Origin: an uncultured Verrucomicrobia subdivision 3 bacterium
GTDB lineage: Bacteria > Verrucomicrobiota > Verrucomicrobiia > Limisphaerales > UBA11358
Direction: 5' to 3'
Assembly: GCA_903918885.1 (NCBI GenBank)
Contig: CAIXFY010000072.1
Coordinates: 1-44,806, forward strand
DNA: 44,806 bases
Part shown: positions 124 to 44,628 of the stretch, in pieces
Numbering within the stretch: position 1 is the first letter of the stretch
Layout of the letters: every line of letters begins with the position of its first letter
Notes under the pieces: model-generated
The model's database searches: none
The model's input: only the letters and a program-made list of their open reading frames with translations
What the model was told of the DNA's origin: nothing
Program-made: the position numbers and the translations under genes

Positions 124-190
124 ACCGGACAGTAGTGATTTTCCCTCTTCTTTTTTGGGGTTGTTAAACCACCCAAATTTTTAACAGATA

Positions 191-209
191 CACTAGGCAT
201 TGCCTAGTG
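191..209. promoter_or_regulatory. 19-bp perfect palindrome, candidate operator
   Basis: CACTAGGCA-T-TGCCTAGTG is a perfect 9-bp inverted repeat around one central base, directly upstream of the XRE-type regulator gene. The size and position fit a dimeric repressor operator, probably autoregulatory. There is no T-run after it, so it is not a typical terminator. The role as operator is inference. Confidence 0.5.
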
Positions 210-241
210 TTTTATTTCACAGCGAATGGCAAAGATTATGT

Positions 242-484
242 GTGCCATCGGTAAAACCAAAGCACTGCCGCCAAAGGTCACGACTTGGAAAAAATGTCGC
301 TGCCCTGCGGAAAAAGCGTGGATTGACACAAGAAATGCTTTCGGAAAAATCTGGCATCAGCACTTGGTATGTCCAGTCCATTGAAGCGGGCGTAAATTTC
401 CCAAGTCTGCCCATTCTGGCGAAGATTAAGACCGCTCTGGAATGCTCTTGGAATCGGCTTTTTGAAGATTGCGACAAGCCGTAA
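242..484 (+). CDS. XRE-family helix-turn-helix regulator, possibly frameshifted at its N-terminus
   Basis: The C-terminal 65 residues form a complete Cro/C1-type HTH: LGKNVAALRKKRGLTQ, a turn at SEKSGIS, then the recognition helix and SIEAGVNFPSLPIL. Such proteins bind operator DNA as dimers. The start is uncertain. A TTG at 200 lies inside the palindrome, GTG at 242 is a compromise, and ATG at 226 or 238 opens another frame (MAKIMCAIGKTKALPPKV) that looks like a natural N-terminus and would join the HTH after a +1 shift near 280. The gene may therefore be a slightly broken copy. It lies between transposase DNA and tiny genes of unknown function, as accessory-region regulators often do. Confidence 0.65.
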   Translation: MPSVKPKHCRQRSRLGKNVAALRKKRGLTQEMLSEKSGISTWYVQSIEAGVNFPSLPILAKIKTALECSWNRLFEDCDKP

Positions 485-578
485 TTAAACAATTAAAAAA
501 TCCCCTGAAGAAAACTTCACGCATTTATTCAAGCGACATTGACCCAAATGCTTTTGAAGAATCGTTTCAATCAAGCAG

Positions 579-842
579 TCATTTTTTACGCTGTCGCTCA
601 ATCTGTTTCCGTCTGGTGATGTATTGACGGGTTTTGGAAATCATCTGACGTAGTTTTTGAATTTCCATCTGCTTGCTGGCCATTTTATTTTGCAGTTTTT
701 CCAATTCGTATTCACCCGCCGATTCATCTAAAACCATTCCCGAATCAAACAACCGATAAATTTCCGCCGTGATAATGTCCAGCAGTTTGAAAATCAATTC
801 TGCATCATTTTTCGTGACTGGATTATTCTGGTTTGGATTCAT
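579..842 (-). CDS. small basic coiled-coil protein, unknown function
   Basis: The protein has 87 residues from ATG at 842. This start is preferred over ATG at 887 because a GGATGGGA purine stretch precedes it. Two halves are visible: a helical segment with acidic and leucine residues (AELIFKLLDIITAEIYRLF), and a long charged helix with regular hydrophobic spacing that ends in a very basic tail (RRKQIERQRKK). This suggests a short coiled coil that could bind nucleic acid or a partner. Its start overlaps the end of the 45-codon gene upstream by 20 nt, so the two are probably co-translated. It converges on the XRE regulator. I do not recognise the family. Confidence 0.5.
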   Translation of the reverse strand: MNPNQNNPVTKNDAELIFKLLDIITAEIYRLFDSGMVLDESAGEYELEKLQNKMASKQMEIQKLRQMISKTRQYITRRKQIERQRKK

Positions 843-960
843 ATTTTTTCCCATCCAGAAAACATTCCAAAAGTCTGTGGAATTCATCTTGGCTCAATTC
901 GTAAGTTTTATCGCCCAATGTTGCTTTGGTTTTCGTCTCGTTGGTCTTCATATTTTTCAT
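823..960 (-). CDS. tiny hypothetical protein (45 aa)
   Basis: An ORF from ATG at 960 to TAA at 823-825 encodes MKNMKTNETKTKATLGDKTY and continues through a helical stretch ending in DGKKYESKPE. An internal ATG at 951 is an alternative start. It is hydrophilic with no membrane segment or cysteine pair. Support comes from its 20-nt overlap with the next gene on the same strand, a typical arrangement for translationally coupled accessory genes. No function can be assigned. Confidence 0.4.
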   Translation of the reverse strand: MKNMKTNETKTKATLGDKTYELSQDEFHRLLECFLDGKKYESKPE

Positions 961-1359
961 TCAAGAATAAATAGCAACCGCGCCAACAAATCCGCGCAAA
1001 TCTTGAAACTTTCTTCCATCAATCAAACGCATCAGGACTGCGAAGGATTCTTAACAGATGAAACAACCCCAATTGACGCCATTATCGCGTGTAGAATTCC
1101 CAAATTTGGCAGACTGAAATGTTTTTAAGGCGACGGACGGGGATGTGTAAAAACGCCCAATCAAATCAGTGTGTGCAGAGTTATTGCCAGTCTAACATCC
1201 AGTCTAACACGAAAGCGTTTTATTCTAGCGGTCCTCGAAAAATCACGCAAAATCTTGAAAACGCCAAAATCAAAATATGAAGACAAAAACCGAAAAAACA
1301 CCAACAGATTCAACTAGATTTACAAGATTTGAAGAGCAAGAAAACTTCAATAAAAATAC
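961..1359. other. gene-poor AT-rich stretch with an 11-bp direct repeat
   Basis: No convincing gene is seen on either strand. CCAGTCTAACA occurs at 1187-1197 and again at 1199-1209, separated by one base. Together with the transposase end at the left edge and the tRNA remnant at 1360-1409, this looks like debris of integrated DNA. It could also hold the promoter for the leftward tiny genes, but no convincing -35/-10 pair is visible. Confidence 0.4.
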
Positions 1360-1409
1360 GCGCATAGACCACCTCAAAGTAGCGTGTCTGCCAATTCCAC
1401 CATATGCGC
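1360..1409 (-). pseudogene. tRNA-Leu(GAG) remnant lacking variable and T arms
   Basis: Read on the minus strand, the sequence starts GCGCATA-TG, then GTGGAATTGGCAGACAC (a leucine-type D arm), then GCTACTTTGAGGTGGT, an anticodon arm carrying GAG. Similarity stops in the 3' side of the anticodon stem. Immediately afterwards comes C-TATGCGC, a perfect 7-bp complement of the 5' acceptor strand (1403-1409 against 1360-1366). A deletion of roughly 35-40 nt that removed the variable and T arms would give exactly this. No CCA follows and the next base is G rather than the usual A73. A functional mini-tRNA is unlikely but cannot be excluded. Confidence 0.55.
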
Positions 1410-1456
1410 AACCGGGCTGAAAATCTTGCCTAATGATGATGTAGAAGCAAGTTTTT

Positions 1457-2665
1457 TCACCGGCCAAACAGCCAGTTCCAACCGCGCCAATGGTTCGGCT
1501 GCGTCGCGCTGAAGCCGCTGCCGTGCGGTTTGTCCAAATCAATCTGCAACAGCACGCTGATGGCGTTCGCCCCGCGCTCGCCGTCGCGCAGGGCGTTGAA
1601 ACCGTAGCCGTAGTTGACCATGAACCGGAATTTGTCCGACGGCGCGCGATACAAAATTCCCGCGCCGACGCCGCTGACGGAATTGCCCGACTGGCCGGTG
1701 CCGGGCAGATAATCAATCACCGCCGTGGCCGCGTTGAAATTCAAATTCCACCGCTGGTTCGGCGCAATGGGCAGCAGGTAACTGGCGTTCAGGATGGCGA
1801 ACTGGCGCGCGCTGAATTCCTGAAAAAAATAGCCGGGCAGCGACAGCGGATATTCCGCCGCGAGCGGGAGAAATCCGCCGAGGCGATAGGCGCTCAAACG
1901 GTCGGCGTTCACGGAGACGCCGGCGACCAGGCGCGCGGAAAAATTCTGTTTACTCTCCGGCAGCGTGTAGGACAGCGCGGCGGCGCTCCAAAAAAGATGC
2001 GTGGCCGACTCGATTTGCCGGTCGCCGTTGAAACCATATCTGCCGGGGTTCGCGCGGAACAGGCCTTCATACCAGACGGAAAGTTCCATCGCGAGTTCGG
2101 GAAACAGCGTCGGCTCAATGCCGCCGTAGCGCAAGCCGGTGCGCACGCTGAAGGTCGTCATGTCGCCGGGCGTCTTGAAATTCGCCGCGGTGTCGTCGTT
2201 GGCGCTGAAGAAGGAATAATGCGCCGCGCCGCGCAAAACCAGATTCAGCGGGATTTGGTCGTCCGGGTTGAACAGGTGATAAATGCTGGCGGAAATTTCG
2301 CCACCGTGGCCGTCAAAGGATTCGCGCTGGTTGTATTGACCCGCATCAATTTCGTTGTGGCCGTCCGCAAAACCGCCGCCCGCCGCGCCGATGGCAAAAT
2401 CCGTCTGCGGGCCGAGGCCGTGGACGAAGCCGAGTTCGGAATCCACGTAGACCGGCGCCAGCGCGAGGCGCAGCGTCAGGTTCGTGCGCAGAAAATCCGG
2501 CTGGTTGTGATAGTAAAACGCGTAGCCCGCCACCGGCGCGCGGCCTTCGAGCGGCTGGTTGTAACCGATTTGGATGAGGTCGCGCTTGACCGGATCAATC
2601 TGCGCGCCAGCGACGAGCGGGAGCGCAAGCATCAGCCAGCACCAGCTTTTCCTGATTCGCCGCAT
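1457..2665 (-). CDS. outer-membrane beta-barrel protein, unknown substrate
   Basis: The protein has 402 residues from ATG at 2665. That start gives a clean signal peptide: basic MRRIRK, hydrophobic CWLMLALPLVAG, cleavage near AQ. The upstream ATG at 2683 only adds six residues. The mature part alternates short amphipathic beta strands rich in Gly, Tyr and Phe with turns of Asp and Asn. The C-terminal third (YRLGGFLPLAAEYPLSLPGY, then YLLPIAPNQRWNLNFN) recalls the barrel of Omp85/BamA-like surface antigens, but no POTRA domain is present and the last residues (LFGR) are not a classic terminal strand. It diverges from carB; the two starts are 107 bp apart. Confidence 0.7.
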   Translation of the reverse strand: MRRIRKSWCWLMLALPLVAGAQIDPVKRDLIQIGYNQPLEGRAPVAGYAFYYHNQPDFLRTNLTLRLALAPVYVDSELGFVHGLGPQTDFAIGAAGGGFADGHNEIDAGQYNQRESFDGHGGEISASIYHLFNPDDQIPLNLVLRGAAHYSFFSANDDTAANFKTPGDMTTFSVRTGLRYGGIEPTLFPELAMELSVWYEGLFRANPGRYGFNGDRQIESATHLFWSAAALSYTLPESKQNFSARLVAGVSVNADRLSAYRLGGFLPLAAEYPLSLPGYFFQEFSARQFAILNASYLLPIAPNQRWNLNFNAATAVIDYLPGTGQSGNSVSGVGAGILYRAPSDKFRFMVNYGYGFNALRDGERGANAISVLLQIDLDKPHGSGFSATQPNHWRGWNWLFGR

Positions 2666-32014: not shown

Positions 32015-32020
32015 TATAAT
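32015..32020 (+). promoter_or_regulatory. consensus -10 box of the DAHP synthase gene
   Basis: A perfect TATAAT lies 8 nt before the ATG at 32029, which would start transcription at or within 2 nt of the start codon and give a leaderless mRNA. The -35 is weak: TCGACT at 31988-31993 is 21 nt away. No Shine-Dalgarno sequence is present. Confidence 0.5.
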
Positions 32021-32028
32021 TGTCGCCC

Positions 32029-33075
32029 ATGTATCGCACGCAGGATTTACACGTCAAAGAAATCGTTCCGCTGCTCTCGCCGCGCGCCATGAAAGCGTTA
32101 TCGCCCACGCCGGAGAAAGTAAACGACTTCGTGGCGCAGTCGCGCGACCGCGTCATCCGCATCTTGAACCAACAAGATTCGCGGCTACTCGTCGTCATCG
32201 GACCATGCTCGATTCACGATGAAAAATCGGCGTTGGAATACGCGACGCGCCTAGCGAAGTTACAAAAGGAGTTTGCCGATAAAATGGAAATCGTGATGCG
32301 CGTCTATTTTGAGAAACCGCGCACGACCATCGGCTGGAAGGGATTGGTCAACGATCCGCATCTCGACGGTTCGCAAGACATCGAAGCCGGTTTGAAAATC
32401 GCGCGCAAATTGCTGTTGCAAATCAACGCGCTTGGATTGTCGGCGGCGACGGAATTTCTCGACCCCATCGTGCCGCAATACATCGCCGACCTCATCACTT
32501 GGGCGGCCATCGGTGCGCGCACTACGGAATCGCAAACGCACCGCGAAATGGCGAGCGGCCTCTCGATGCCGGTCGGTTTGAAGAACGCCACGGACGGCAG
32601 CTTGCAGGTGGCGATTGACGCGATGGGCGCGACACGGCATCCGCATAGTTTTCTGGGCTTGAACGAAGACGGCGTGACGAGCATCGTCCGCACGAACGGC
32701 AACCCGAACGCGCACGTCGTCCTGCGCGGCGGTCGGGCGATGACGAACTACGACGCGGCGAGCATCGCGGCGGCGGAGCAGAAACTGGCCGCCGAAAAAC
32801 TGCCGCCGGTGCTGATGGTGGATTGCAGCCACGCGAACTCGGAAAAAAAATTCGCCAAGCAGGAGGAAGTCTGGCACAGCGTCATCGCGCAGCGCGCGGG
32901 CGGGACCAAATCGCTCATCGGGCTGATGGTGGAAAGCCATTTGAACGAGGGTAACCAGCCGATTCCGAAGAAAATTTCCGAACTACGCTACGGCGTGAGC
33001 ATCACCGATTCGTGCATCGGCTGGGAAACGACCGAGCGGATGCTGCGCTGGGGCTACGAGACGCTGAAGAAATAA
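32029..33075 (+). CDS. aroF: 3-deoxy-7-phosphoheptulonate synthase (class I)
   Basis: The enzyme condenses erythrose 4-phosphate and phosphoenolpyruvate, the first shikimate step. The 348-residue protein has LLVVIGPCSIHDEKSAL, MRVYFEKPRTTIGWKGLVND, SAATEFLDPIVPQYIADLI, TTESQTHREMASGLSMPVG, and VDCSHANSEK. These are the PEP- and metal-binding signatures of the AroF/G/H type. Which feedback inhibitor it senses is not readable. It begins after a strong -10 box and ends at a hairpin terminator (33090). Confidence 0.94.
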   Translation: MYRTQDLHVKEIVPLLSPRAMKALSPTPEKVNDFVAQSRDRVIRILNQQDSRLLVVIGPCSIHDEKSALEYATRLAKLQKEFADKMEIVMRVYFEKPRTTIGWKGLVNDPHLDGSQDIEAGLKIARKLLLQINALGLSAATEFLDPIVPQYIADLITWAAIGARTTESQTHREMASGLSMPVGLKNATDGSLQVAIDAMGATRHPHSFLGLNEDGVTSIVRTNGNPNAHVVLRGGRAMTNYDAASIAAAEQKLAAEKLPPVLMVDCSHANSEKKFAKQEEVWHSVIAQRAGGTKSLIGLMVESHLNEGNQPIPKKISELRYGVSITDSCIGWETTERMLRWGYETLKK

Positions 33076-33133: not shown

Positions 33134-34375
33134 TCAGAAGGCGTAATTGTAGGCCAGGGAAATCAGGTGGACATTGAAGCTGTATTTGCCGTGAATCGGA
33201 TTCGCAGGGTCGGTGATGTTGCGGTCGTTGTAGAAATCGAGGCCGTAAGCGGCTTCAAGCGAGCTGTGCCGGCCGTGCCAGCCGAGCCCGATGGTGAAGA
33301 CGTTTTGATTCGCGTCGGGGATGGTTGGCGAGAGGGTCGAGTCCGGCACGGGGCTTTCAAAGAACTGGTAGCCGGCGCGCAGCACCCAGTGGTCGGCGAA
33401 TTTCCAGTCGCCGCCAAAACCAACGGTGAAGGTGTCATGCCAGTTTTCCGGAATGGTTTGCGTGAGGTTGCCGACGGCGGGTAGCACGCCGGTGGTGATT
33501 CCCAGATTTTTGAACATCGAAAACTGCACCCATTCAACGTCGGATTCCAGACGGATTTTGTCCGTGAGCGCAATGCCGTAGCCGAGTTGAACGATGTTCG
33601 GATATTTGATCTGGCTGCCGAAGGAGGTAGGCGTGCCGGGGAAATTTTCCAACCGCGCCGTGCCGCTGTAATCCACAGTCATCGTGGAACGGTAGGTCAA
33701 TGCGAGGCGCTGGCGGTCGTCAATTTTCCAAGTGATGCCGAGGTTGCCGCCAACGCCGACGCCATCGCTGTCGCCATGGACTTCGGCACTCTGGGTTGCT
33801 GAGACGGGAAAAGCGAGCTGGCGGATTTCCAAATCCGACCACATGACATCCAGACCTACGCCGATTTGCAGGCGGTCGCATAGTTTGTAAGCGAAGGTCG
33901 GATTGATGTTGATGGTGGTGAGCTTGCCGAAATTGGCGGCGTTGTAGAGCGGGCCGCCCAGCTGGTAAGCCGATGAGCTTTTGTCCCACTGATTGCCCAA
34001 ACCGTAAGGCACGGTCACACCCAAACCGACGGCCATGCGGTCGTTGAGCGGGACGGTCGCAAAGAAATTCGGCAGCACCTTGATTGGGTGAATGGTGGAA
34101 GCGGACTCGCCGGTCGGTGATTTGTAATCCACGTTGATATAAATCACCGAAGGCGTCAGTTGCGCCTCGGTGTTGGTGATGTCGACAATGTTGGCCGGAT
34201 TGTTCTGCACCGCCGTGGCGTCGTCCACCTGCGCGATGCGGCCGCCGGAGCGCCCCAAATCGAACGCGCCGATGGTGGCATCGCGAAAGCCTTCAGCAAA
34301 GGCGCCGGTTGAAACCACCAGAACAGCGGTGGCCAGACTGAGTCGGAGAAGTGGGGTTTGCTTGTGGATTTTCAT
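33134..34375 (-). CDS. OmpP1/FadL/TodX-type outer-membrane transporter
   Basis: FadL-type barrels carry long-chain fatty acids or aromatics through the outer membrane. The 413-residue precursor from ATG 34375 has a signal peptide (SLATAVLVVSTGAFA), then the conserved N-terminal plug region (GAFDLGRSGGRIAQVDDATA, NNPAN), and a long barrel with alternating aromatic strands. The C-terminal strand ends in Phe (SLAYNYAF), typical for Bam-assembled porins. It diverges from the FabZ-like gene that starts the signalling cluster. An import role for a fatty acid-derived signal is conceivable but unsupported by anything except proximity. Confidence 0.85.
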   Translation of the reverse strand: MKIHKQTPLLRLSLATAVLVVSTGAFAEGFRDATIGAFDLGRSGGRIAQVDDATAVQNNPANIVDITNTEAQLTPSVIYINVDYKSPTGESASTIHPIKVLPNFFATVPLNDRMAVGLGVTVPYGLGNQWDKSSSAYQLGGPLYNAANFGKLTTININPTFAYKLCDRLQIGVGLDVMWSDLEIRQLAFPVSATQSAEVHGDSDGVGVGGNLGITWKIDDRQRLALTYRSTMTVDYSGTARLENFPGTPTSFGSQIKYPNIVQLGYGIALTDKIRLESDVEWVQFSMFKNLGITTGVLPAVGNLTQTIPENWHDTFTVGFGGDWKFADHWVLRAGYQFFESPVPDSTLSPTIPDANQNVFTIGLGWHGRHSSLEAAYGLDFYNDRNITDPANPIHGKYSFNVHLISLAYNYAF

Positions 34376-34549
34376 AGGTAAAACTGATTGGCTCCGCCGT
34401 GTTTTGAAACAACGGCCGGAAAAATGCAAGCAAAACATCCGGTAGAACCGGTATTCCGACCGCCAGTGGCCGGGCCGAGGCCCAAAGTGCCGATGCAAAT
34501 TTATTTTCAAAGCCATCGGTTTTGCACTATACAGAAGGCGGCTGAAATC
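34376..34549. promoter_or_regulatory. divergent control region before the FabZ-like gene
   Basis: CCGATG near 34492 and CATCGG near 34515 form an inverted repeat around an AT-rich core. TTGCACTATACA near 34521-34532 contains a TATACA that could be the -10 of the signalling cluster. There is no clear -35. Both assignments are weak. Confidence 0.3.
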
Positions 34550-35011
34550 ATGAATCAAAACCCGCTCACGCAAATGCCGGACACCGACAAGCGTCCGATT
34601 TATTTTCGCCCTCAATTGGAAGCCATGTTTCTGCCGGTGGAACAGATGCTGCAGATTGACCGGGTGACTTCCATCGATGGCAAGTGTTTGGTTTGCGAAA
34701 TGGATGTGCCTGGACATTGGGTTTTTCCGCTGCACTTTCCGACCGACCCCATATTCCCGGGCACACTTTTGATTGAAGCCGCTGGCCAAGCGGTGGCGGT
34801 CTGGGGCTGGCACGCCGGGCTACGCGGACGGCCGCGCTTAGTCAAAGTAGAAGCAAAGTTTGAAAGTCCGGTGCTGCCCGATGATCAAGTCGTTACATTT
34901 GTGGCATCGGTGCATCTGCGAAAAAACATATGTCTGGGCACCGTTGAACTTTTTGTGCGGGAGCGAAAAGTCGCCACCGTTACGGCGGTGATTATCATCG
35001 CTCCGTTTTAA
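34550..35011 (+). CDS. FabZ-like 3-hydroxyacyl-ACP dehydratase (hotdog fold)
   Basis: FabZ dehydrates 3-hydroxyacyl-ACP to trans-2-enoyl-ACP; relatives bind other acyl thioesters. The 153-residue protein from ATG 34550 keeps the catalytic histidine in PLHFPTDPIFPG (His62) and the catalytic glutamate in LLIEAAGQ (Glu76). It has a longer N-terminus than FabZ, AGQAVAVWGW in place of the usual AAQ helix, and ends in TVTAVIIIAPF. It starts the gene run 34550-39120 and is followed after 18 nt by the methyltransferase. Supplying or tailoring a 3-hydroxyacyl substrate for that protein is inference. Confidence 0.8.
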   Translation: MNQNPLTQMPDTDKRPIYFRPQLEAMFLPVEQMLQIDRVTSIDGKCLVCEMDVPGHWVFPLHFPTDPIFPGTLLIEAAGQAVAVWGWHAGLRGRPRLVKVEAKFESPVLPDDQVVTFVASVHLRKNICLGTVELFVRERKVATVTAVIIIAPF

Positions 35012-35029
35012 CTCGGGATTACGCCAGAT

Positions 35030-36460
35030 ATGAAAGCCGCCATTGCCGAATCAAAATTGCTGACAAGCCAGATTTCCTGTCGAAATAGTTCCGGACAAGA
35101 GATTCGGGCGACGCTGCTTCATTTCACCCGGTTTCGCGCGACCTTTGAAATCTACATCCCTTCCAGCGTGCTGCAGATGTCCGAGGTGCTGGAGAATTTC
35201 AAAATCATCCTCAACGATCAGGAAGTTTATTCAGGGCGGGCGGTGGTTAGCAATCTGGTCAACACGGGCAGTGCTATGGCCTGCGAAGTGACGCTCGACG
35301 ATCATTGGATAAACGCGAAATCGGCAGAGCGCAAAGGTGAAGCGTCCTTGCGCGAAGGCTTTGGTGAATTCTTACAACAATGGCAAAAGGTCTATAAAGT
35401 ATTGCCGGAATTCAAAGTCGTAATCGCGGATATGCGGTCGCTGTTGTCGGATATGCAACTGTGGATGGGACAGATTGAGTTGCAATTTGAGGCCGCCAAG
35501 AATGGAAACCGCGCGGGGAAGGAGCAACAAGCCGCCCACGAACTTGCTGGGCCAGCTATTGCGGCCATTGAGTCGTTGGGTGACCGGTTTGAAGAAATCA
35601 CCGGCCGACTGGAACAAGATTTGCGCCCGGCACACATGCATTTCACGCGCCGCAATCTTCATTCACTGTTGATGTGCTCCCCTTTTAGTCACCGCACTTT
35701 TCACAAGCCGCTGGGCTACGCGGGTGATTATGGGATGGTGAACATGATTTTACAAAATCCTTACCAGGGCGATTCATTGTATGCCAAAGTGGTGAACGCT
35801 TGGTTTCTCAACCAGCTTCCCGCGCAAGCCCATCGCAACCGTATCAAATATCTGAAAAGAAAACTGGTGGAGGAGATTCTGCGCACCCGGAATCAGTCGC
35901 GTCCGGCTCGGATTTTCAATCTAGGTTGTGGCCCAGCCCACGAGATTCAGGAATTCTTGGGCGAGAGCGATCTTTGTAACCATGCCCGGTTCACTTTGCT
36001 TGATTTCAACGAGGAGACCATCCAATACACGAGCCGCCTGTTGCAAGAAGCCAGCCGACGCTTTGAGCGCAGAACGTCCATTGAGATGCGCAAAAAAACC
36101 GTGCAGCAATTGCTCAAGGAAGCCATGCGCTGGGATAAAAATCCGACGACGGAAGAATATGATTTTATTTATTGCGCCGGTCTCTTCGACTATCTGCCGG
36201 ACAGCGTCTGCAAACAACTGGTGGAGGTTTTTTATCGGTTGCTTGCCCCCAACGGCCTACTGCTCGTGACTAATGTTGACGGCACGCGGCCCTTTCGCAA
36301 CAAGCTGGAATATATTCTCGATTGGAACCTGATTTACCGTAATGCGAAGGAATTATTTGATTTCCGACCCGATGCGGCATTGGGGGAAGCTTGCTTGGTT
36401 CAGTCCGACCTCACTTCGGTGAATGTATTTTTGGAAGTCAGAAAACCCCAAAATGCGTAG
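35030..36460 (+). CDS. PhcB-like PilZ/SAM-methyltransferase protein
   Basis: The protein has 476 residues in two parts. Residues 1-95 form a PilZ-like beta domain (VYSGRAVVSNLVNTGSAMA, CEVTLDDHW) without obvious RxxxR c-di-GMP residues. After a helical linker comes a class I methyltransferase with IFNLGCGPAHEIQEFLGE near 294-311, RFTLLDFNEETI, and FIYCAGLFDYLPD. This layout and the LPAQAHRNRIKYLKRKLVEE region match proteins called extracellular-factor or 3-hydroxypalmitate methyl ester biosynthesis, typified by Ralstonia PhcB. Its stop overlaps the next ATG by 8 nt. The product here is unknown; methylation of a hydroxy fatty acid is the hypothesis. Confidence 0.75.
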   Translation: MKAAIAESKLLTSQISCRNSSGQEIRATLLHFTRFRATFEIYIPSSVLQMSEVLENFKIILNDQEVYSGRAVVSNLVNTGSAMACEVTLDDHWINAKSAERKGEASLREGFGEFLQQWQKVYKVLPEFKVVIADMRSLLSDMQLWMGQIELQFEAAKNGNRAGKEQQAAHELAGPAIAAIESLGDRFEEITGRLEQDLRPAHMHFTRRNLHSLLMCSPFSHRTFHKPLGYAGDYGMVNMILQNPYQGDSLYAKVVNAWFLNQLPAQAHRNRIKYLKRKLVEEILRTRNQSRPARIFNLGCGPAHEIQEFLGESDLCNHARFTLLDFNEETIQYTSRLLQEASRRFERRTSIEMRKKTVQQLLKEAMRWDKNPTTEEYDFIYCAGLFDYLPDSVCKQLVEVFYRLLAPNGLLLVTNVDGTRPFRNKLEYILDWNLIYRNAKELFDFRPDAALGEACLVQSDLTSVNVFLEVRKPQNA

Positions 36461-37883
36461 CACGTCTCCCAGTCCAAGCGAAATTGATGCCGCCTATCAG
36501 GATTGGGATCGGACAGCCACCATCGCCAACTTCAAAGTCACCTGCTACCTCGGTCTGGTGCTGATGCCCGCCGGGACGGTTCTTGATTATTTTGTTTATC
36601 CGGACAGAGTCGTTGAATTCCTCAAGTTGCGCTTGCTGTGCGATGTGCTCATAGCGGGTTGGTTGAGTCTGTTAGCCACGCCTTTCGCCAAGAAACATTG
36701 TCGCAGTCTGGGTGTTGCTCTAGCGATGCTACCCGCCTTTTTTATTTCCCTGATGATTTATCGCATCCCGGGCGGCGCAAGTTCCCCTTACTATGCCGGT
36801 CTTAATCTGGTTCTACTCGCGGTGGGGTTTGTGATGAACTGGACATTCTTGGAAAGCCTTGTCGCCACGACTTTGATCATCATCATGTATCTGGCCGCCT
36901 GCTTGGCCAACGGTTCCATCCACCAGTTTGGCATTTTTTTTAACAATGTCTATTTCCTGAGCTTGACGGGAATCATCGTGGTTACCGGCCGATTTTTTCA
37001 CAGCAAAATCCGTTACAACGAATTTGCCTTCCGCTACCAGTTGGACCAAAGCAAACAGGAACTCGAATTCAGCAATAGCCAGCTCTCTGAAAAAAATACC
37101 GAGTTGGAAAAGGCCAACCGCGACATCCGCGAGGCTGAGGCCCAGCTCGTGCAGTCCGAAAAAATGGCTTCGCTCGGCTTGCTCGCCGCCAAAATCGCGC
37201 ACGAAATCCGCAATCCGCTCAATTACGCGCGCATGAATCTGGATACGCTGCGCAAGCGCTTTAAAAATCTGCCGCCGGAACAGCACGCCGAGGCGGGCGC
37301 CATCGTGGCGGACATGAGCGACGGCTTCACGCGCATAGACAGCATTGTATCCGACCTACTCACCTTCTCGCAACCCGGCGGGCAGGAGCCAGAGCCCGTT
37401 GATGTCGCGCATATTTTCAAAACCACCCTGCGCTATGTGGCCAATCAGTTAGAGGAAAAAAACATCCGCCTAGAGCAAAATCTGACGCTGGGGCATCTCA
37501 TTTGGGTCAACCGCCAACAGTTCAATCAGGTGCTGGTCAACCTGTTGGAAAACTCCATTGACGCGCTCAGCGCAAAAGAATTTTCCGGCGACGACCAACC
37601 CACGATCACCGTCTCCTGCCGCCTCGAAAACGACCGCCAGTTGATTTCCATTCGCGACAACGGTGCGGGCATTGACCCGCAGAATCTGGCGAAAATCTTT
37701 GATCCGTTCTTCACCACCAAGGACATCGGCAAGGGCACGGGCCTTGGCTTGAGCATTTGTTTCGGCATCGTCCGCGGCTACAGCGGAAACCTGCGCGTCG
37801 AGAGCGCGCCGGGGAAATTCTGCGAATTCATCATTGACCTACCCGCCAACGATCCGTCAAAGCCCGCCCATGGAAACGCCTAA
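36453..37883 (+). CDS. six-TM sensor histidine kinase (PhcS-like position)
   Basis: The protein has 476 residues from ATG 36453, overlapping the methyltransferase gene. Six membrane helices fill residues about 25-185, with short loops and no large periplasmic sensor, as in kinases that detect membrane-soluble ligands. A coiled coil follows, then the phosphoacceptor [14 protein letters not shown]-box [18 protein letters not shown], a F-box FDPFFTTKD and [10 protein letters not shown]. All catalytic boxes are intact. In Ralstonia, PhcS is the kinase encoded next to PhcB that senses the methyl ester; the same order is seen here. Ligand identity is inference. Confidence 0.88.
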
Positions 37884-39120
37884 CGATTACAAAAAATTCG
37901 GCATTCTTTATGTCGATGACGAGGAAAAGGCGCTCACCGCCTTCGCCCGCTATTTCAGCGACCAGTTCCGCGTGTTCACGGCGACCAATGCACAGGACGG
38001 CCTTAAATTGCTGGAAGAAAACGCCGCCGAAATCGGCATCCTGCTGACCGACCAATGGATGCCCGGCGAAAAGGGCGTGTGGCTGCTCGAGCGCGCGCGC
38101 GAACTCCATCCGCGCATCCTGCGCATCCTCGTCACCGCCAACCGCGACATGGAGGTAGCCATCCAGGCCGTTAACACCGGCGCGATTTACAAATATGTCA
38201 ACAAGCCGCTCGACCTCGCGCAGATGGAATTGGACTTCAAGCGCGGGCTGGACTTCTTCGCGTTGCAAGCGGAGCGCGACCAGTTGCTGCGCGAAAAAAT
38301 GTCCGTTATCCGCAACATGATGATTGCCGACCGTGTGGTCAGCCTCGGCCTGCTGGCCGCCGGATTGAGTCATCACATCAAAAACTCGATGGTCGCAGTA
38401 AAAACTTTCCTTGAACTCGCGCCACTCAAGATGGCCGAGGAAAAAGGCAATGGCGACAGCCTACGCGATCCGGATTTCTGGAGCGACTACCACAAAAACG
38501 TTCAGGAGCAGATTGAAAAAATCAACCACTTGCTTGGCGATTTGCGCACCGCCTCGGAAAACAAATCAGGGGAACCGTTCGCCGACCAGATTCAACTAAA
38601 GGCCGCCGTGGACAATTGTCTCGCGGGCTTGGCCAGTCAGCTCGCGACGCGGCGGATTGAGGTGAAAAATAATATTTCCGATTCACTGCCGCCCATGCAG
38701 GTGGACAAGCCGAAATTTGACCGCATGTTGGAATTGCTCGTGAAAGACGAACTGGCCATGCTGCCCGCCGGTAGTCAGATTTCGTTTTCGGCGCAAGTCC
38801 ACGACAAAGAGATGGCGATTGAGCTCACCGACAACGGCCCGGCACTGCCGCAAGAAGCCTTGCGCGTCGTGCTGGATCCCTTTGTCATCACCAGCGGCAA
38901 ACCCTCGGAATACGGCATCAATTTGATGGCCTGTTTTTTTATCGCCCACCATCATGGCGGCAAAATCGAGGCGCAAAATCTGCCCGGTATCGGCAACCGC
39001 TTCGTCATCCGTCTGCCGCTGCGGCCAGAAGTAACGACTGCCGGATCCGAAGACACGGCGTTTCTCAAGAAGGCGATGTTCAATGAAAAATTTTGGGACA
39101 AACTGATCTCCCAGAGTTGA
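37870..39120 (+). CDS. response regulator with a degenerate kinase-like tail (PhcR-like)
   Basis: The protein has 416 residues from ATG 37870, overlapping the kinase gene by 14 nt. The N-terminal receiver is complete: acidic pair in LYVDDEE, phosphoacceptor Asp61 in LLTDQWMPG, the Thr in LVTANRD and the Lys in VNKPLD. The second half looks like a histidine kinase but is damaged. LSHHIKNSM keeps the histidine (His168), while the N-box is replaced by LELLVKDEL, the DNGPALP box lacks the second glycine motif, and the GxGLGL loop reads SEYGINLM. It probably does not bind ATP and may act as a phosphorylation-controlled dimer or scaffold. Ralstonia PhcR also has a receiver followed by a kinase-like tail. 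Confidence 0.85.
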   Translation: METPNDYKKFGILYVDDEEKALTAFARYFSDQFRVFTATNAQDGLKLLEENAAEIGILLTDQWMPGEKGVWLLERARELHPRILRILVTANRDMEVAIQAVNTGAIYKYVNKPLDLAQMELDFKRGLDFFALQAERDQLLREKMSVIRNMMIADRVVSLGLLAAGLSHHIKNSMVAVKTFLELAPLKMAEEKGNGDSLRDPDFWSDYHKNVQEQIEKINHLLGDLRTASENKSGEPFADQIQLKAAVDNCLAGLASQLATRRIEVKNNISDSLPPMQVDKPKFDRMLELLVKDELAMLPAGSQISFSAQVHDKEMAIELTDNGPALPQEALRVVLDPFVITSGKPSEYGINLMACFFIAHHHGGKIEAQNLPGIGNRFVIRLPLRPEVTTAGSEDTAFLKKAMFNEKFWDKLISQS

Positions 39121-39230
39121 CGGGTGGAAATCGTATTTCCCTCAAGATTCCATTGACCTTTTGTTGGTTTCGGTAAAGGATAAGGGGCAGAAATGCCAAC
39201 TTCGCAAAATCAGTTTCGCCCAAACATCCG

Positions 39231-41258
39231 ATGAAAACGATTCTGGTCTTGTCCCCCCATCCCGACTTCGCCGAGGCCGTTCGCGCCTGTCTCGACGCCG
39301 AACAATATCGCGTCGTTCATCGCATCAATGTTGAGGAAGCTGAGCCGCTCGTGGTTCACGGACTCGCCGGGGCATGCATCCTCGACGCTGATTTGATGGG
39401 CGTGGAAAGCATCTGGACCATCGAACGCCTCCGCCGCCGCGACAAAAAATCCCCCATCATCGCCTACACCGAACTGACGGCGGCCGACTGGGAAGAAGAA
39501 GCGTTTCTCCACGGCGTCACGCATGTGCTGACCAAGCCCATCCGCGCGAAACTTTTGAATGCCGTTCTCAACCGCCTCTGGGCGGTGTCGGCGGCTCCGC
39601 GAGCGACTCAAGTTCCCACTGGTAACACCGCCATCTTCACCCGCGCCGCTGCGGATCCGGGTGCCGGCGAGCGCTTCGTGAACGCCTCGCAAACGCTCGA
39701 TGTTTTGCGTGATTTTTCCCCCATCCTCACACACTCGCTCGACGCCGAGGCGATGCTGAAACAGTTTCTGCAATTTCTCCGCGACATCTTGAGCGTCAAT
39801 CGCGCCGCGATTTTCCTGAACCGCCCGTGTTCGCCGCTCACCGAAGTCATTTCACCCGAAGACGCGCGGCGGCTGCGCTCGGCGGCGGCCATTGGCCTCG
39901 CGAACGGCCTGCTCGAACATTTTGAGCTGTCGCTTGATTCCGGCATCGGCGCGCAAGTCACCAAACTCGGCCGCATCCTCCGCCGCGACAGCGACGAGGC
40001 TCGCGCCGACGCCGAGGTGCAAAAGGAATTTGAACTGCTCGGCGCGCAGGTCGCCGTGCCGATTCCCAATCGCGATACGATTATCGGCGTCGCCATTTTC
40101 GACGGCCGCGTCACCGGCGAACCGCTGGTGAATGTGGAGCTGGAACTGATTTTCCATTTACTTGAACAGGTCGGCCTTGCGCTGCGCAACATCTGGCTGC
40201 ACGACCAGCTCGCGGGCAACCACGAAATGATGACCGACGTGCTGCGCGAATTGAACAGTGCGTGCATCGTGGTCGGCCGCGATTTAAAGGTGCTCCACGC
40301 CAACAAGTCGGCGCGGCGGCATTTCGGACGCAAGAACGAGCGCACCGGTAAATTGGAATTCAGCGACCTGCCGCCTTCGCTTGGTGGTAAGATTTATCAG
40401 GTGTTGAAGACCGGTGCGGCACTCGAGCCGTTCCGTTTCGAACCCGAAAATGCGCCGGGCACAGTGTATAAAGTTTCCGTGATTCCGTTCCAGCACGGTA
40501 ATTCGTCCGTGCCGGTTTCCGCGCTGCTCACCGCCGAGGATTTGTCCGAAAGCGAGCAGTTGAACCGGCTGGAGGTCGAGGCATCCAGCCTGCGCCTCAT
40601 TCGCTCCATGTCATATCGCTTGGTGAATGAAATCGGCAATGCCGTGGTTCCACTGTCCACGCACCACCAGCTTTTGAGCGAACATTTTGGCGATGAAGAG
40701 TTCCGCAAGTCGCTCGACACGGCGCTGGGCGAAGGCGTGCGCCGCATCATGCGGTTGAACAATCAAATGCGTTTCCTCGCGCGCGACGGCCATTTGGAAC
40801 AGGAAACTTTTGCCATCGGCACCTTGGTTGAAGAAGCCTATCAGGAAGCAATCAAACACCAGCCTACGAGCGGTGCGCAGTTGAAGTTTGAAAATTCCAG
40901 CAAGTCGCTCGTCGTGGTCGGCGACCGCGCGGCGTTGAAACACGCGCTTTCCGAAATCATGATTAATGCGCTGCAGGCCAATCCGCAGAATCCGAAGATT
41001 GGCGTGACGCTCAAACCCGCTGGCAATGGCGCTGAACGCTCCATAACCATCGAGGTCAACGACACTGGCGGTGGGTTCACCGTGGAGGCGGCCAAAAAAA
41101 TTCCCGCGCCGTTTTTCACCACCCGCAATGTCGGGCTCGGGCTCGGCCTCACGGTAAGCCAGAAAATCATCGAAACACACCACGGCAAGCTGGAAATCGT
41201 CCCCTCCGAATCCGGCGTGGTGCGCATGTCACTCCCAGTCGAAGCCGCTGCTGCTTAA
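39231..41258 (+). CDS. REC-GAF-PAS-HATPase protein lacking the phosphoacceptor histidine
   Basis: The protein has 675 residues. Domains are an atypical receiver (1-120; the usual acidic pair is replaced by LSPHPDF, candidate Asp52 or Asp54, Lys in TKPIR), a GAF (about 155-325), a PAS (about 340-440), a DHp-like helix pair and a HATPase. The helix where HExxN is expected reads RLVNEIGNAVVPL, so Asn replaces the phosphorylated His. The ATPase boxes are intact: EIMINALQAN, DTGGGF, GLGLGLTVSQ. It could phosphorylate another protein's histidine or sense nucleotides allosterically. It follows the PhcR-like gene after 110 nt on the same strand and ends at a terminator (41283). Confidence 0.85.
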   Translation: MKTILVLSPHPDFAEAVRACLDAEQYRVVHRINVEEAEPLVVHGLAGACILDADLMGVESIWTIERLRRRDKKSPIIAYTELTAADWEEEAFLHGVTHVLTKPIRAKLLNAVLNRLWAVSAAPRATQVPTGNTAIFTRAAADPGAGERFVNASQTLDVLRDFSPILTHSLDAEAMLKQFLQFLRDILSVNRAAIFLNRPCSPLTEVISPEDARRLRSAAAIGLANGLLEHFELSLDSGIGAQVTKLGRILRRDSDEARADAEVQKEFELLGAQVAVPIPNRDTIIGVAIFDGRVTGEPLVNVELELIFHLLEQVGLALRNIWLHDQLAGNHEMMTDVLRELNSACIVVGRDLKVLHANKSARRHFGRKNERTGKLEFSDLPPSLGGKIYQVLKTGAALEPFRFEPENAPGTVYKVSVIPFQHGNSSVPVSALLTAEDLSESEQLNRLEVEASSLRLIRSMSYRLVNEIGNAVVPLSTHHQLLSEHFGDEEFRKSLDTALGEGVRRIMRLNNQMRFLARDGHLEQETFAIGTLVEEAYQEAIKHQPTSGAQLKFENSSKSLVVVGDRAALKHALSEIMINALQANPQNPKIGVTLKPAGNGAERSITIEVNDTGGGFTVEAAKKIPAPFFTTRNVGLGLGLTVSQKIIETHHGKLEIVPSESGVVRMSLPVEAAAA

Positions 41259-41282: not shown

Positions 41283-41319
41283 AAAAACCCGCAGGTTCAA
41301 ACCTGCGGGTTTTTGTTTT
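41283..41319 (+). terminator. intrinsic terminator of the signalling cluster
   Basis: AAAAACCCGCAGG (41283-41295) pairs with CCTGCGGGTTTTT (41302-41314), a perfect 13-bp stem with a six-base loop and a T-rich end. The symmetric A/T flanks let it work for the convergent ferredoxin gene too. Confidence 0.9.
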
Positions 41320-41680: not shown

Positions 41681-43099
41681 ATGCAAAGAAGCAATCTGCG
41701 CCATACCAAAATCGTTTCCACCCTTGGTCCGGCGACCGATTCCGCTGAGATGATTGGTAAGCTGATTGACGCCGGCGTTAATGTTTTCCGACTGAATATG
41801 TCCCACGCCCCGCATGACTGGGTGCGCCGCGTGTTCAATTCCATCCGTAGCGAATCGGCCAAGCGTTCGCGCCACACGGGCATCCTCATGGACACGCAAG
41901 GTCCGGCCATCCGCACGGGTGACATCGCTTCGCCGCTTGATCTGAAACCCGGACAAAAATTTACGCTCACCGTGCGCGGTGAAAAGTCCGAGGAGGAACA
42001 TTCCGTGGACGTGAATTACGAAAATTTCATCAACGACATCAGCGTCGGCGACGTAGTGCTGCTCGATAACGGCGCGATTGAAATGAAGGTGCTCGCCAAG
42101 TCCGGCAACAAGGTGGAATGCGAAGTTCTGACCGCCGGCACGCTCGGCAGTCGCCGCCACATCAATTTGCCCGGCGTGAAAGTTTCGCTCCCCGCGCTCA
42201 CCGCCAAGGACATCAAGGACGTGAAGCTCGGCCTCGAACTTGGAGTTGATTTTGTCGCGCTTTCATTCGTGCGCGAGGCACGCGACCTGTTGCAGCTCCG
42301 GGAACTTTTTGGCGACAAGCAGCCACAGCCGTTCGTAATCGCCAAAATCGAGGATCAGGAGGCGATTAAGAATCTCGAAGCCATCGTGCGCGAAGCCGAT
42401 GGCATTATGGTTGCGCGCGGCGATTTGGGCATTGAAATCCCCTACTACGAACTGCCCATCGTCCAGCGCCGCATCGGCAAGACCTGCCTGCGCATCGGCA
42501 AGCCCGTCATCGTCGCCACGCACATGCTCGAAAGCATGATTCATTCACCCATGCCCACGCGCGCCGAGGTCACCGACATCGCGAACGCCGTTTTTGAGGA
42601 AGCAGACGCCATCATGTTGAGCGGCGAAACCACCGTCGGTAAATATCCACTCAAGTGCATCGAAGTCTTCGACAAGATTGCCACGCGCATCGAGCGCAGC
42701 GGTAGCGCGCAATTTCACGAAGCGGCGGAACTGACCACCGCCCGTCAGAAACTTGTGAAAAGCGCCGTCGTCATGGCCAACGAACTCAAGGCCGCCGCCA
42801 TCGTCTCGTTCACGCGGCACGGCCACATGGCGCGCTACGCCGCTTGGATGCGCCCGCGCTATTCGCCGATTTACGCAATGTGCGACAACGACCGCTCCGC
42901 CAACGAACTCACCTTGAGCTGGGGCGTCACGCCGTTCGTCATGGAATTCGATTTCATCCAGCCGCAGAACACCATTGAAAGCGGACTGAAAAGTCTCGTC
43001 GCCGACGGCAAACTGAATCCGGGCGACACCGTCGTAATCATCGGCGCGATTTCCGTCGGCACTGAAATCGTGGATGCGGTGCAGATGCGCACGGTATAA
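41681..43099 (+). CDS. pyk: pyruvate kinase
   Basis: The enzyme converts phosphoenolpyruvate and ADP to pyruvate and ATP. The 472-residue protein has the substrate site (VFRLNMSHA, Arg37-Asn39-Ser41), QGPAIRTG, the catalytic lysine in IAKIEDQEAIKN, metal-binding VARGDLGIEI, and VATHMLESMIHSPMPTRAE. Most homologues read ATQMLESM, so the His at the Gln position is notable. The C-terminal allosteric domain is present. It has its own promoter region after the divergent ferredoxin gene and a strong terminator at 43118. Confidence 0.96.
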   Translation: MQRSNLRHTKIVSTLGPATDSAEMIGKLIDAGVNVFRLNMSHAPHDWVRRVFNSIRSESAKRSRHTGILMDTQGPAIRTGDIASPLDLKPGQKFTLTVRGEKSEEEHSVDVNYENFINDISVGDVVLLDNGAIEMKVLAKSGNKVECEVLTAGTLGSRRHINLPGVKVSLPALTAKDIKDVKLGLELGVDFVALSFVREARDLLQLRELFGDKQPQPFVIAKIEDQEAIKNLEAIVREADGIMVARGDLGIEIPYYELPIVQRRIGKTCLRIGKPVIVATHMLESMIHSPMPTRAEVTDIANAVFEEADAIMLSGETTVGKYPLKCIEVFDKIATRIERSGSAQFHEAAELTTARQKLVKSAVVMANELKAAAIVSFTRHGHMARYAAWMRPRYSPIYAMCDNDRSANELTLSWGVTPFVMEFDFIQPQNTIESGLKSLVADGKLNPGDTVVIIGAISVGTEIVDAVQMRTV

Positions 43100-43117
43100 A
43101 TGGAATTCGTTTAAAAC

Positions 43118-43157
43118 AAAACGCGCCGACAGAATTTTGTCGGCGCGTTTTTATTTT
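43118..43157 (+). terminator. intrinsic terminator of pyk
   Basis: AAAACGCGCCGACA (43118-43131) pairs with TGTCGGCGCGTTTT (43138-43151), a perfect 14-bp stem with loop GAATTT, then T-rich sequence. It lies between convergent pyk and nuoN and may serve both. Confidence 0.92.
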
Positions 43158-43167
43158 ACAGCTCAAA

Positions 43168-44628
43168 TTATTTTCCCAAGGCAGTCGCCGCGAGATTGGT
43201 GATGTTTAAAAGTATATTCGGACACAGGCCAATCCAGAAGATTCCTACGAGGCAGACCCAGATAGAAAGCTTCGCCGACGACGAAAGCTCGATAACGGAC
43301 AAATCACCCGCTTCCTTACTCCAATAAATCGCCCGAATGACTCCGAAATAATAGTAGAGCGAAATGATCACGCCCGCGAGCGCCGTGAAGGCGAGGCAAT
43401 AATAGCCGTGATTGCCGGTGGCCTGCGCGGTTTCAATCACCGCTTTGAGCAGCAAGAATTTTCCGAAGAAGCCGGCCAGCGGCGGAATGCCCGCGAGCGA
43501 CACCATCGCTATGGTCAGCGTGGCGGCGAGCAAAGGCGAACGCTGGTTCAAGCCAGCGAGACCGGAAATATCTTCCGTCGCCAGATGGCGCATAACCAAC
43601 GTGATAACGAAAAACGCCGCCATCACCGTGAACAAGTAACCGGCGAGATAATACATCAGTGCCGACTGTCCGCTCGCGTTCAATGCCGCCACGCCGAGCA
43701 ACAGGTAGCCGGCGTGGGCGATGCTGGAATAACCGAGCAGGCGTTTCAAATTCCGCTGCGGAATCGCGCAAAGATTTCCGTAAAGAATCGTGATGCCGGA
43801 AATGACGATGAGCAGGTTTGCCCAATGCGCCGTCACGCTTGGCACGGCGGTGAATAGCACGCGCAGGAGCAGAACAAATCCGGCGGCCTTGGAACCGATG
43901 GCGAGAAACGCGGTGGTCGGCGTCGGCGCGCCTTGATAAACGTCCGGTGCCCAGATTTGAAACGGGAACGCGGCGATCTTGAAGCCGAGTCCGACCAAAA
44001 CCAACAGCACGCCAAGCAGAAAAATCCGGCTGGTTTCAAACTGTGGCGCGACAGCGGCGAGTTTGGTGAAGTTGAGTTCACCGGTCGTGCCCCAAATCAG
44101 CGCGATGCCGAACACCATGAATGACGATGAGAGCGCGCCGAGAATCAGATATTTCACACCAGCTTCGAGCGATTGGAGTTTGCTGCGCTGGAAACTGACA
44201 AGGACGTAAAACGTGACCGTGATGAGTTCGATGGAAACGAACAGCATCGTGAAGTCGTTGGACGACGCGGCGAACAACATTCCCGCCAGCGCAAAAAGAA
44301 TGAGCGAATAATATTCCGCCACGCTCCCCTCGGCGAGTTTGTCGGCAAATTCTGCAGCCATGAACAGAACTAGAATCGCCGCGACAATGAAGAGTTGTTT
44401 GAAGAACAGCGACAGAGCGTCGTTGACGAACATACCGCCGAACGCGGTGCCGAATTGGCCGCAGCCGCCGTTGCCGCTCAAGCTCGTCACGAGCAGCACG
44501 CCCAGCGCCAAGATGGCCGCGTAGCCGATGTAGCGACGGCGCTCGGCAGGCACAAACAGATCGGCCAACATCAGCACGAGGCCGAGGCCGATCACCGAAA
44601 TTTCCAGCATGATCAGGGAGGAATTCAT
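43168..44628 (-). CDS. nuoN: NADH-quinone oxidoreductase subunit N
   Basis: NuoN is one of the antiporter-like, proton-pumping membrane subunits of complex I. The 486-residue protein has about fourteen helices. Signatures include the lysine/glutamate in FVSIELITVTFYVLVSFQR, KYLILGALSSSFMVFG, FKIAAFPFQIWAPDVYQGAP (TM7-8 region), and LLGYSSIAHAGYLLLG. It is the last gene of a nuo operon read leftward; its ATG overlaps the nuoM stop as ATGA. Confidence 0.95.
   Translation of the reverse strand: MNSSLIMLEISVIGLGLVLMLADLFVPAERRRYIGYAAILALGVLLVTSLSGNGGCGQFGTAFGGMFVNDALSLFFKQLFIVAAILVLFMAAEFADKLAEGSVAEYYSLILFALAGMLFAASSNDFTMLFVSIELITVTFYVLVSFQRSKLQSLEAGVKYLILGALSSSFMVFGIALIWGTTGELNFTKLAAVAPQFETSRIFLLGVLLVLVGLGFKIAAFPFQIWAPDVYQGAPTPTTAFLAIGSKAAGFVLLLRVLFTAVPSVTAHWANLLIVISGITILYGNLCAIPQRNLKRLLGYSSIAHAGYLLLGVAALNASGQSALMYYLAGYLFTVMAAFFVITLVMRHLATEDISGLAGLNQRSPLLAATLTIAMVSLAGIPPLAGFFGKFLLLKAVIETAQATGNHGYYCLAFTALAGVIISLYYYFGVIRAIYWSKEAGDLSVIELSSSAKLSIWVCLVGIFWIGLCPNILLNITNLAATALGK

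What the first reader, a model, noticed from the sequence alone, without database searches (positions are those of the whole stretch)
34550..41258. Phc-like signalling cassette with a FabZ-like enzyme and three kinase-related proteins
The sequence shows tight same-strand genes: FabZ-like dehydratase, PilZ-like/methyltransferase protein (18 nt later), six-TM kinase (8-nt overlap), receiver plus kinase-like tail (14-nt overlap), REC-GAF-PAS-HATPase (110-nt gap), then a terminator. In Ralstonia, phcB-phcS-phcR encode a methyltransferase, a kinase and a receiver with a kinase-like tail that make and sense 3-hydroxypalmitate methyl ester. A linked hotdog enzyme could shape the 3-hydroxyacyl substrate. 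The hypothesis is a fatty acid methyl ester quorum system in a probable Verrucomicrobiota. No LuxI, CqsA or PhcA-like regulator lies nearby.
Basis: partly seen in the sequence, partly recalled or inferred. Interest (0 to 1): 0.85.

Follow-up and report, generated by a model that had tools for sequence, protein, structure and literature searches.

The report
Phc-like fatty-signal cassette beside FadL
A bacterium of a phylum far from Ralstonia carries the same kind of gene set that Ralstonia relatives use to make and sense a fatty-acid methyl ester signal, here beside an outer-membrane fatty-acid channel, which suggests that this chemical language is more widespread than known.

Summary
In detail: five tight same-strand genes and a strong terminator. 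The Phc reading survives most tests. The 476-aa methyltransferase matches a PhcB profile of 80 betaproteobacterial proteins end to end (397 bits). Cupriavidus PhcS, PhcR and PhcQ each find their best place in the whole genome inside this cassette; the PhcS match is reciprocal. The order synthase-kinase-receiver is kept in 26 of 29 related loci; the three misses lie at contig edges.

Corrections: the receiver protein is nearer PhcQ than PhcR and its kinase tail is degenerate. The FabZ-like gene is a rare accessory, close relatives in 2 of 40 genomes. The synthase's N-terminal domain has a PilZ-like fold.

Best reading: a Phc-like system, distinct from canonical Phc, that makes a long-chain fatty acyl methyl ester, takes it back through FadL and senses it with a membrane kinase. 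Chemistry and output are untested.

The parts
33134..34375 (-). OmpP1/FadL/TodX-family outer-membrane channel, divergent from the cassette (Met of MKIHKQT at 34375)
   Evidence: Pfam PF03349 216 bits, cut-off 29.7; start placed; linked to the methyltransferase in 25 of 30 loci
34376..34549 (.). 174-nt divergent intergenic region between FadL and the FabZ-like gene; probable regulatory region for both (inference)
   Evidence: coordinates; no sigma-70 promoter-like match in it
34550..35011 (+). FabA/FabZ-like hotdog protein, 153 aa, with FabZ-type catalytic pair His62/Glu76 (pair recalled); accessory, close relative in 2 of 40 genomes
   Evidence: PF07977 67 bits; PDB hits FabA/FabZ; residues; distribution
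35030..36460 (+). PhcB-like signal synthase: PilZ-like N-terminal domain, helical linker, class I SAM methyltransferase
   Evidence: PhcB HMM 397 bits over 11-460 of 463; tree; fold model and matches
35054..35326 (+). PilZ-like N-terminal domain of the synthase (canonical c-di-GMP motifs, recalled, not seen)
36453..37883 (+). PhcS-like sensor kinase: hydrophobic sensor, HisKA with acceptor His, intact N, G1 and G2 boxes
   Evidence: reciprocal best hit with Cupriavidus PhcS
37870..39120 (+). PhcQ-type receiver plus linker with a kinase-like tail that has lost the N-box Asn (probable pseudokinase)
39231..41258 (+). REC-GAF-PAS-HATPase protein; in the window the acceptor His is Asn and the receiver's acidic pair is lost (by eye); ATP-site boxes intact
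   Evidence: present in 14 of 29 related loci
41283..41314 (+). intrinsic terminator, 14-bp stem

Best explanation
The cassette is a Phc-like cell-cell signalling system of a probable verrucomicrobium. Shown by sequence: a PhcB homologue, a PhcS homologue and a PhcQ/PhcR-type receiver protein in phc order, beside a FadL-family channel. Inferred: the synthase methylates a long-chain (probably 3-hydroxy) fatty acid with SAM; in this lineage the FabZ-like enzyme adjusts the acyl pool; the ester leaves the cell and is taken back across the outer membrane through FadL; the membrane kinase senses it and passes phosphate from its HisKA His to the receiver Asp of the PhcQ-like protein. The dead kinase tail of that protein would act by protein contact on a downstream regulator, as PhcQ does on PhcA, while the REC-GAF-PAS-HATPase protein adds a second input or modulates phosphate flow. 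The PilZ-like domain of the synthase suggests that signal synthesis answers to a second input.
For: PhcB profile to window synthase 397 bits and PhcS profile to window kinase 281 bits, both over the whole length; PhcQ profile 155 bits over positions 11-187 of 330, PhcR profile 106 bits over its receiver. In the window's own genome Cupriavidus PhcS scores 214.8 bits here against 102.5 for the next place, PhcR 96.0 against 49.6, PhcQ 115.5 against 38.6, in a genome with 44 receiver matches. Reverse search: the window kinase's best place in Cupriavidus necator is phcS, 218.5 against 126.6 bits. Sensor part 56 of 185 aligned positions identical to PhcS, kinase part 83 of 238, acceptor His aligned. 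Receivers of PhcR, PhcQ and 27 proteins of this type (the window's and 26 of relatives) form one group, 100/98 support, apart from six other receivers of the genome. Gene order kept in 26 of 29 related loci; in 81 of 81 betaproteobacterial loci a kinase and at least one receiver follow phcB. FadL within 10 kb of 25 of 30 synthase loci; 29 of 29 synthase genomes have FadL, 4 of 11 genomes without synthase do, Fisher p 1.8e-5; within the genus 21 of 21 against 0 of 4. FadL takes up long-chain AHL signals in Sinorhizobium (PMC9938287, passages). PhcB makes 3-OH PAME/MAME and PhcS senses it (PMC8578825, PMC11960443, passages).
Against: No product, ligand or phenotype was tested. Identity to PhcB is about 35-38% in the 28 rows compared, low enough for a change of substrate. 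No FadL was found beside 80 betaproteobacterial phc loci, so its link is not part of the known system, and the association is not corrected for phylogeny; in the other families of the order alone it is 8 of 8 against 4 of 7, p 0.08. Five of 30 synthase loci have no FadL on their contig. No PhcA-like output was found: the genome has two LysR-type proteins and neither was shown to be PhcA. The receiver protein's tail is degenerate, its acceptor His is lost in 6 of 26 rows, and Pfam sees no DNA-binding domain in the block.
Confidence: 0.55

Rival explanations
1. A fatty-acid or lipid sensing system, not quorum sensing. FadL brings in exogenous long-chain fatty acids, the methyltransferase esterifies them inside the cell, and the kinase senses the ester or the acid as a nutrient or membrane-stress cue. 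No signal is exchanged between cells.
For: FadL-family channels import exogenous fatty acids and hydrocarbons (fatty acids recalled; hydrocarbons from the abstract start of PMC7728783 in a listing). In 20 of the 29 genomes with the synthase there is a single FadL gene, and in 16 of these 20 it is the one beside the synthase, so it may serve general uptake. The product has not been identified in any member outside betaproteobacteria (recalled; no search made for it).
Against: The whole-length homology to PhcB and PhcS, whose described role is to make and sense an excreted ester (PMC8578825, passages); no FadL was found beside the phc loci of betaproteobacteria.
Confidence: 0.27
2. The methyltransferase acts on another substrate (another small molecule or a protein) and the cassette is a signalling relay of unrelated output that merely shares ancestry with Phc.
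Against: Linkage to FadL in 25 of 30 loci, and in two genomes to a 3-hydroxyacyl dehydratase-like enzyme, points to acyl chains.
Confidence: 0.13
3. Ordinary unlinked two-component genes that happen to lie beside a generic methyltransferase.
For: Pfam sees only generic domains.
Against: Reciprocal best hit for the kinase, specific receiver clade, and gene order kept in 8 of the 9 sampled genera of the order that have the synthase (the ninth is cut by a contig edge) and in betaproteobacteria.
Confidence: 0.02

Closest known systems
Phc quorum sensing system (phcB-phcS-phcR-phcQ with phcA) of Ralstonia and Cupriavidus
   Same: Whole-length PhcB and PhcS homologues, a receiver protein of the PhcQ/PhcR clade, same order and strand.
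   Different: One PhcQ-like receiver with a degenerate kinase tail in place of PhcR and PhcQ; an added REC-GAF-PAS-HATPase protein; a linked FadL; a FabZ-like gene in this lineage; no identified PhcA; another phylum. A published survey of 6,937 proteobacterial genomes describes phc as restricted to Betaproteobacteria and did not look outside Proteobacteria (PMC10653808, passages).
FadL-assisted uptake of long-chain AHLs in Sinorhizobium
   Same: An outer-membrane FadL serves the uptake of a long-chain acyl signal (PMC9938287, passages).
   Different: The signal there is an acyl-homoserine lactone; here the synthase is PhcB-like and FadL is encoded beside it.
FabZ/FabA 3-hydroxyacyl-ACP dehydratases
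   Same: Hotdog family PF07977; FabZ-type His/Glu pair (pair recalled).
   Different: Well under the FabZ and FabA equivalog cut-offs (44.4 of 113 and 43.0 of 238 bits); the genome has another, weak match (29 bits) in a 492-aa frame on another contig, probably its housekeeping FabZ-type domain, not scanned.
PilZ domain proteins

Membership tests
canonical Phc system | PhcB-type methyltransferase, whole length | tested here: met
   397 bits over 11-460 of 463 profile positions; both scan motifs present
canonical Phc system | PhcS sensor kinase with acceptor His (H230 in Ralstonia, PMC11960443, passages) | tested here: met
   281 bits over 9-443 of 445; reciprocal best hit; His aligned with His in 20 of the 20 PhcS rows aligned, of 81 held
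canonical Phc system | PhcQ-type receiver | tested here: met
   155 bits over 11-187 of 330; sister to PhcQ receivers at 94/76, moderate support
canonical Phc system | separate PhcR with receiver and intact kinase domain | tested here: not met
   the receiver protein next to the kinase lacks the N-box Asn, as do 25 of 25 rows of its family with letters there (27 rows aligned), while 4 of 4 PhcR rows keep it
canonical Phc system | PhcA LysR regulator | tested here: inconclusive
   two LysR_substrate proteins in the genome; PhcA itself was not recovered as a query
canonical Phc system | product is a 3-hydroxy fatty acid methyl ester | not testable with these tools
   needs chemistry
FadL family | PF03349 over its cut-off | tested here: met
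   216.1 bits, cut-off 29.7
FabZ | NCBIfam equivalog score | tested here: not met
   44.4 of 113 bits
PilZ domain | PilZ fold | tested here: met
PilZ domain | c-di-GMP binding | not testable with these tools
   canonical motifs (recalled) not seen by eye in A3
LuxI, CqsA/LqsA systems | LuxI or CqsA/LqsA synthase beside the cassette | not tested
   no search was made for these families

The most novel reading that the evidence does not exclude
A FadL-dependent fatty acyl methyl ester quorum system is widespread in an order of Verrucomicrobiota, with the outer-membrane channel as a built-in part, a PilZ-like gate on the signal synthase and a PhcQ-like pseudokinase as the output; betaproteobacterial Phc is a derived, FadL-less branch of this older family.
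Probability: 0.3. Interest if true: 0.8.

Novelty: new variant of a known kind. Interest (0 to 1): 0.63.

Why it matters
A published survey of Proteobacteria places phc in Betaproteobacteria (PMC10653808, passages), where it governs large sets of genes. A homologous cassette that is common in an order of another phylum gives that phylum a concrete, testable candidate for a diffusible fatty signal. The FadL linkage suggests how a very hydrophobic ester could cross the outer membrane; the only paper in the searched library that holds both words FadL and phcB is on an unrelated subject by its title (listing). The PilZ-like fold in the synthase, in a domain that betaproteobacterial PhcB shares by alignment, suggests a link between signal synthesis and a second input.

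Tried and rejected
Split-kinase idea: in the window the receiver-kinase protein keeps the acceptor His and lacks the ATP-site Asn, while the REC-GAF-PAS-HATPase protein has the reverse. Rejected as a general rule: in the 15 rows of the latter 11 have the His, and 3 of the 4 rows without it come from loci where the former has also lost its His.

PhcS-PhcR fusion idea for the 892-966-aa kinases of 13 of 28 related loci: rejected, since the 12 of these receivers that entered the tree do not group with PhcR, and in 13 of 13 the second kinase part scores higher with the PhcS profile than the first.

Rows dropped in the receiver tree: 15 of 15 REC-GAF-PAS-HATPase receivers, 1 of 13 long cassette kinases and the receivers of two of the eight own-genome loci did not give a long enough match and are not in it.

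PhcA: I tried to recover Cupriavidus PhcA from the region near phc. The one LysR gene that I looked at closely sits beside FAD-linked oxidase genes (by eye) and does not look like PhcA; the question stays open.

A fold comparison of the whole synthase put no methyltransferase of known ester chemistry clearly first; this excludes nothing. By sequence the best solved relative of the synthase is at E 0.005. No 16S was found in the window's own assembly.

FadL near betaproteobacterial phc loci was sought with a profile of nine FadL proteins from this order; a very distant FadL could be missed, and only 63 of the 80 loci have both 10-kb flanks.

PhcB-like proteins of other phyla were not sampled, and the nesting of PhcB inside this phylum's diversity may change with more taxa. 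A second, short synthase fragment of G014 (47.5 bits) was left out of the FadL count.
Full report
OBSERVATION. Pfam domains agree. NCBIfam has no equivalog over its cut-off in the rows shown: FabZ 44.4 of 113 bits for the hotdog protein, best methyltransferase 20.7 bits; for the three kinase-related proteins the best 25 of 85 to 99 families were listed. So annotation alone leaves the cassette unnamed.

SYNTHASE. The methyltransferase was found in 29 of 40 genomes of the genus and order, in 9 of 16 genera (the window's genome counted), and at 39% over 96% of its length on a Paraburkholderia graminis plasmid, where it heads a methyltransferase-kinase-receiver-receiver run of genes. A scan of named genomes with an alignment led by that protein gave 80 loci (the best of 572), all betaproteobacterial by title, among them Cupriavidus necator. 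The literature describes phcBSRQ in Cupriavidus (PMC2842291 and PMC2864759, passages), and four genes of that kind stand in that order in the necator loci L095 and L124. A profile of 80 such PhcB proteins (79 from the scan and the plasmid one; L101, split in two frames, was left out) matches the window protein over 11-460 of 463 positions with 397 bits. In a quick tree of 56 rows the window protein, its relatives and PhcB lie together, apart from five short methyltransferases without the N-terminal domain; no rRNA methyltransferase was included. PhcB (14 rows, support 100) nests among sequences of the window's phylum; its nearest rows are three proteins of other families of the same class (97). 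Rooting is by midpoint, the five short rows have long branches, many inner forks are weak, and other phyla were not sampled.

KINASE AND RECEIVERS. Cupriavidus PhcS, PhcR and PhcQ were searched against the window's whole genome. Each has its best place in the cassette, by 214.8 against 102.5, 96.0 against 49.6 and 115.5 against 38.6 bits. The genome has 44 receiver matches, so this is not a small choice. The window kinase searched against the Cupriavidus genome falls on phcS, 218.5 against 126.6 bits (position checked by arithmetic against L124's range). The sensor half is itself alike, 56 of 185 aligned positions, and the acceptor His aligns with His in 20 of 20 PhcS rows. A receiver tree of 71 rows puts PhcR, PhcQ and 27 of the 29 receiver-kinase rows in one group (100/98) apart from six other receivers of the genome, with the window type next to PhcQ (94/76, moderate; few columns). 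The two rows outside are the second receiver-kinases of L043 and L044. The receivers of the REC-GAF-PAS-HATPase proteins did not enter the tree. The tail of the PhcQ-like protein has lost the N-box Asn in 25 of 25 rows with letters there, against 4 of 4 PhcR rows that keep it; its acceptor His is kept in 20 of 26 rows, the window's among them. The REC-GAF-PAS-HATPase protein keeps its ATP-site boxes in 15 of 15 rows; its acceptor His is kept in 11 of 15 and is Asn in the window.

NEIGHBOURHOOD. In 29 related loci (28 other genomes, one with two copies) the kinase follows the synthase in 28, the receiver protein in 26, the REC-GAF-PAS-HATPase protein in 14; the loci without kinase or receiver (L042, L049, L067) are cut by a contig edge. 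In 13 of the 28 the kinase is 892-966 aa long and shows two kinase parts to the PhcS profile; Pfam on three of them shows kinase-receiver-kinase. A close relative of the hotdog protein lies beside the synthase only in the window and in G009, whose synthase is the nearest; weak matches (under 36 bits) occur in 39 of 40 genomes overall, many in frames of 445 aa or more.

FADL. The gene upstream on the other strand is an OmpP1/FadL-family channel (216 bits), 174 nt from the hotdog gene. In the 40 genomes searched, FadL lies within 10 kb of the synthase in 25 of 30 loci, in 24 of these within 1.3 kb. The five misses are G029, G039, G019, G023 and G011, of which G023 has under 1 kb of contig upstream. 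29 of 29 genomes with the synthase have FadL; of 11 without it 4 have one, two of these by weak partial matches (Fisher p 1.8e-5). In the genus the split is 21 of 21 against 0 of 4 (p 7.9e-5); in the other families of the order 8 of 8 against 4 of 7 (p 0.08). These tests treat genomes as independent, which they are not. Further out in the phylum 3 of 7 whole-length loci have a FadL-like gene in the stretch read. None of 80 betaproteobacterial loci has a FadL hit in the flank held, which is 10 kb on both sides for 63 of them. In Sinorhizobium FadL mediates uptake of long-chain AHLs (PMC9938287, passages). One paper of the library holds both words FadL and phcB, on an unrelated subject by its title.

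DISTRIBUTION AND HOST. In 194 genomes drawn across the phylum 14 had a match at E 1e-3, of which 8, the window's included, are whole-length; of the other 7, all 7 have a kinase and 6 a receiver gene next to the synthase. So the cassette is dense in this order and patchy elsewhere. No 16S was found in the window's assembly, but the six 16S loci fetched from relatives (nine genomes had a match) all carry the EUB338-III site, which I recall as the Verrucomicrobia variant. A published survey of Proteobacteria describes phc as restricted to Betaproteobacteria (PMC10653808, passages). Two searches for phcB or quorum sensing with Verrucomicrobi* listed no report of such a system by title (2 of 2 listed, one of them opened at one passage, 10 of 122 listed).

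MECHANISM. Shown: homology, order, intact catalytic boxes of the kinase, receiver residues of the PhcQ-like protein present by eye, degenerate tail, FadL linkage. Inferred: a fatty acyl methyl ester product, its passage through FadL, sensing by the kinase, phosphotransfer to the PhcQ-like receiver and output by protein contact, in the way PhcQ binds PhcA (PMC13320629, passages). I put homology to Phc at about 0.95, a fatty acyl ester product at about 0.6, and cell-cell signalling at about 0.55. It works like Phc as far as sequence can tell; it is not filed as canonical Phc because PhcR with a live kinase is missing and PhcA is not shown.

Noticed in passing
L043, L044, L045, L046, L047, L048, L050, L052, L053, L055, L058, L061, L065 (kinase gene): In 13 of 28 related loci the PhcS-like kinase is about 900 aa with two kinase parts and a receiver between them; the second kinase part is the more PhcS-like and the receiver is not of PhcR type.
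   Followed up: partly
L175:3359-7223: A genome with a whole-length cassette (G229) has a second set: a 319-aa methyltransferase without the N-terminal domain, a PhcS-like kinase and a receiver-kinase protein.
   Followed up: no
L171, L173, L174 downstream of the synthase: More distant members of the class carry two or more receiver proteins after the long kinase, somewhat like phcQ and phcR; not tested by a tree.
   Followed up: partly
L042 and L063 (G009): One relative has two synthase loci, each beside its own FadL; one of them has the FabZ-like gene.
   Followed up: partly
plasmid records: 102 Rhizobium plasmid records match the synthase; the listed ones do so at 24-27% identity over 62-70% of it. 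In the one opened (L041) no kinase or receiver gene is annotated next to it.
   Followed up: partly
window 1-2000: G+C drops to 0.467 against 0.53-0.61 in the other stretches of the window.
   Followed up: no
window 32020-33075 and 41681-44628: In several relatives the cassette also lies near DAHP synthase-like, pyruvate kinase-like and NuoN-like genes (by likeness of ORF starts), so this is probably an old chromosomal place in the genus.
   Followed up: partly
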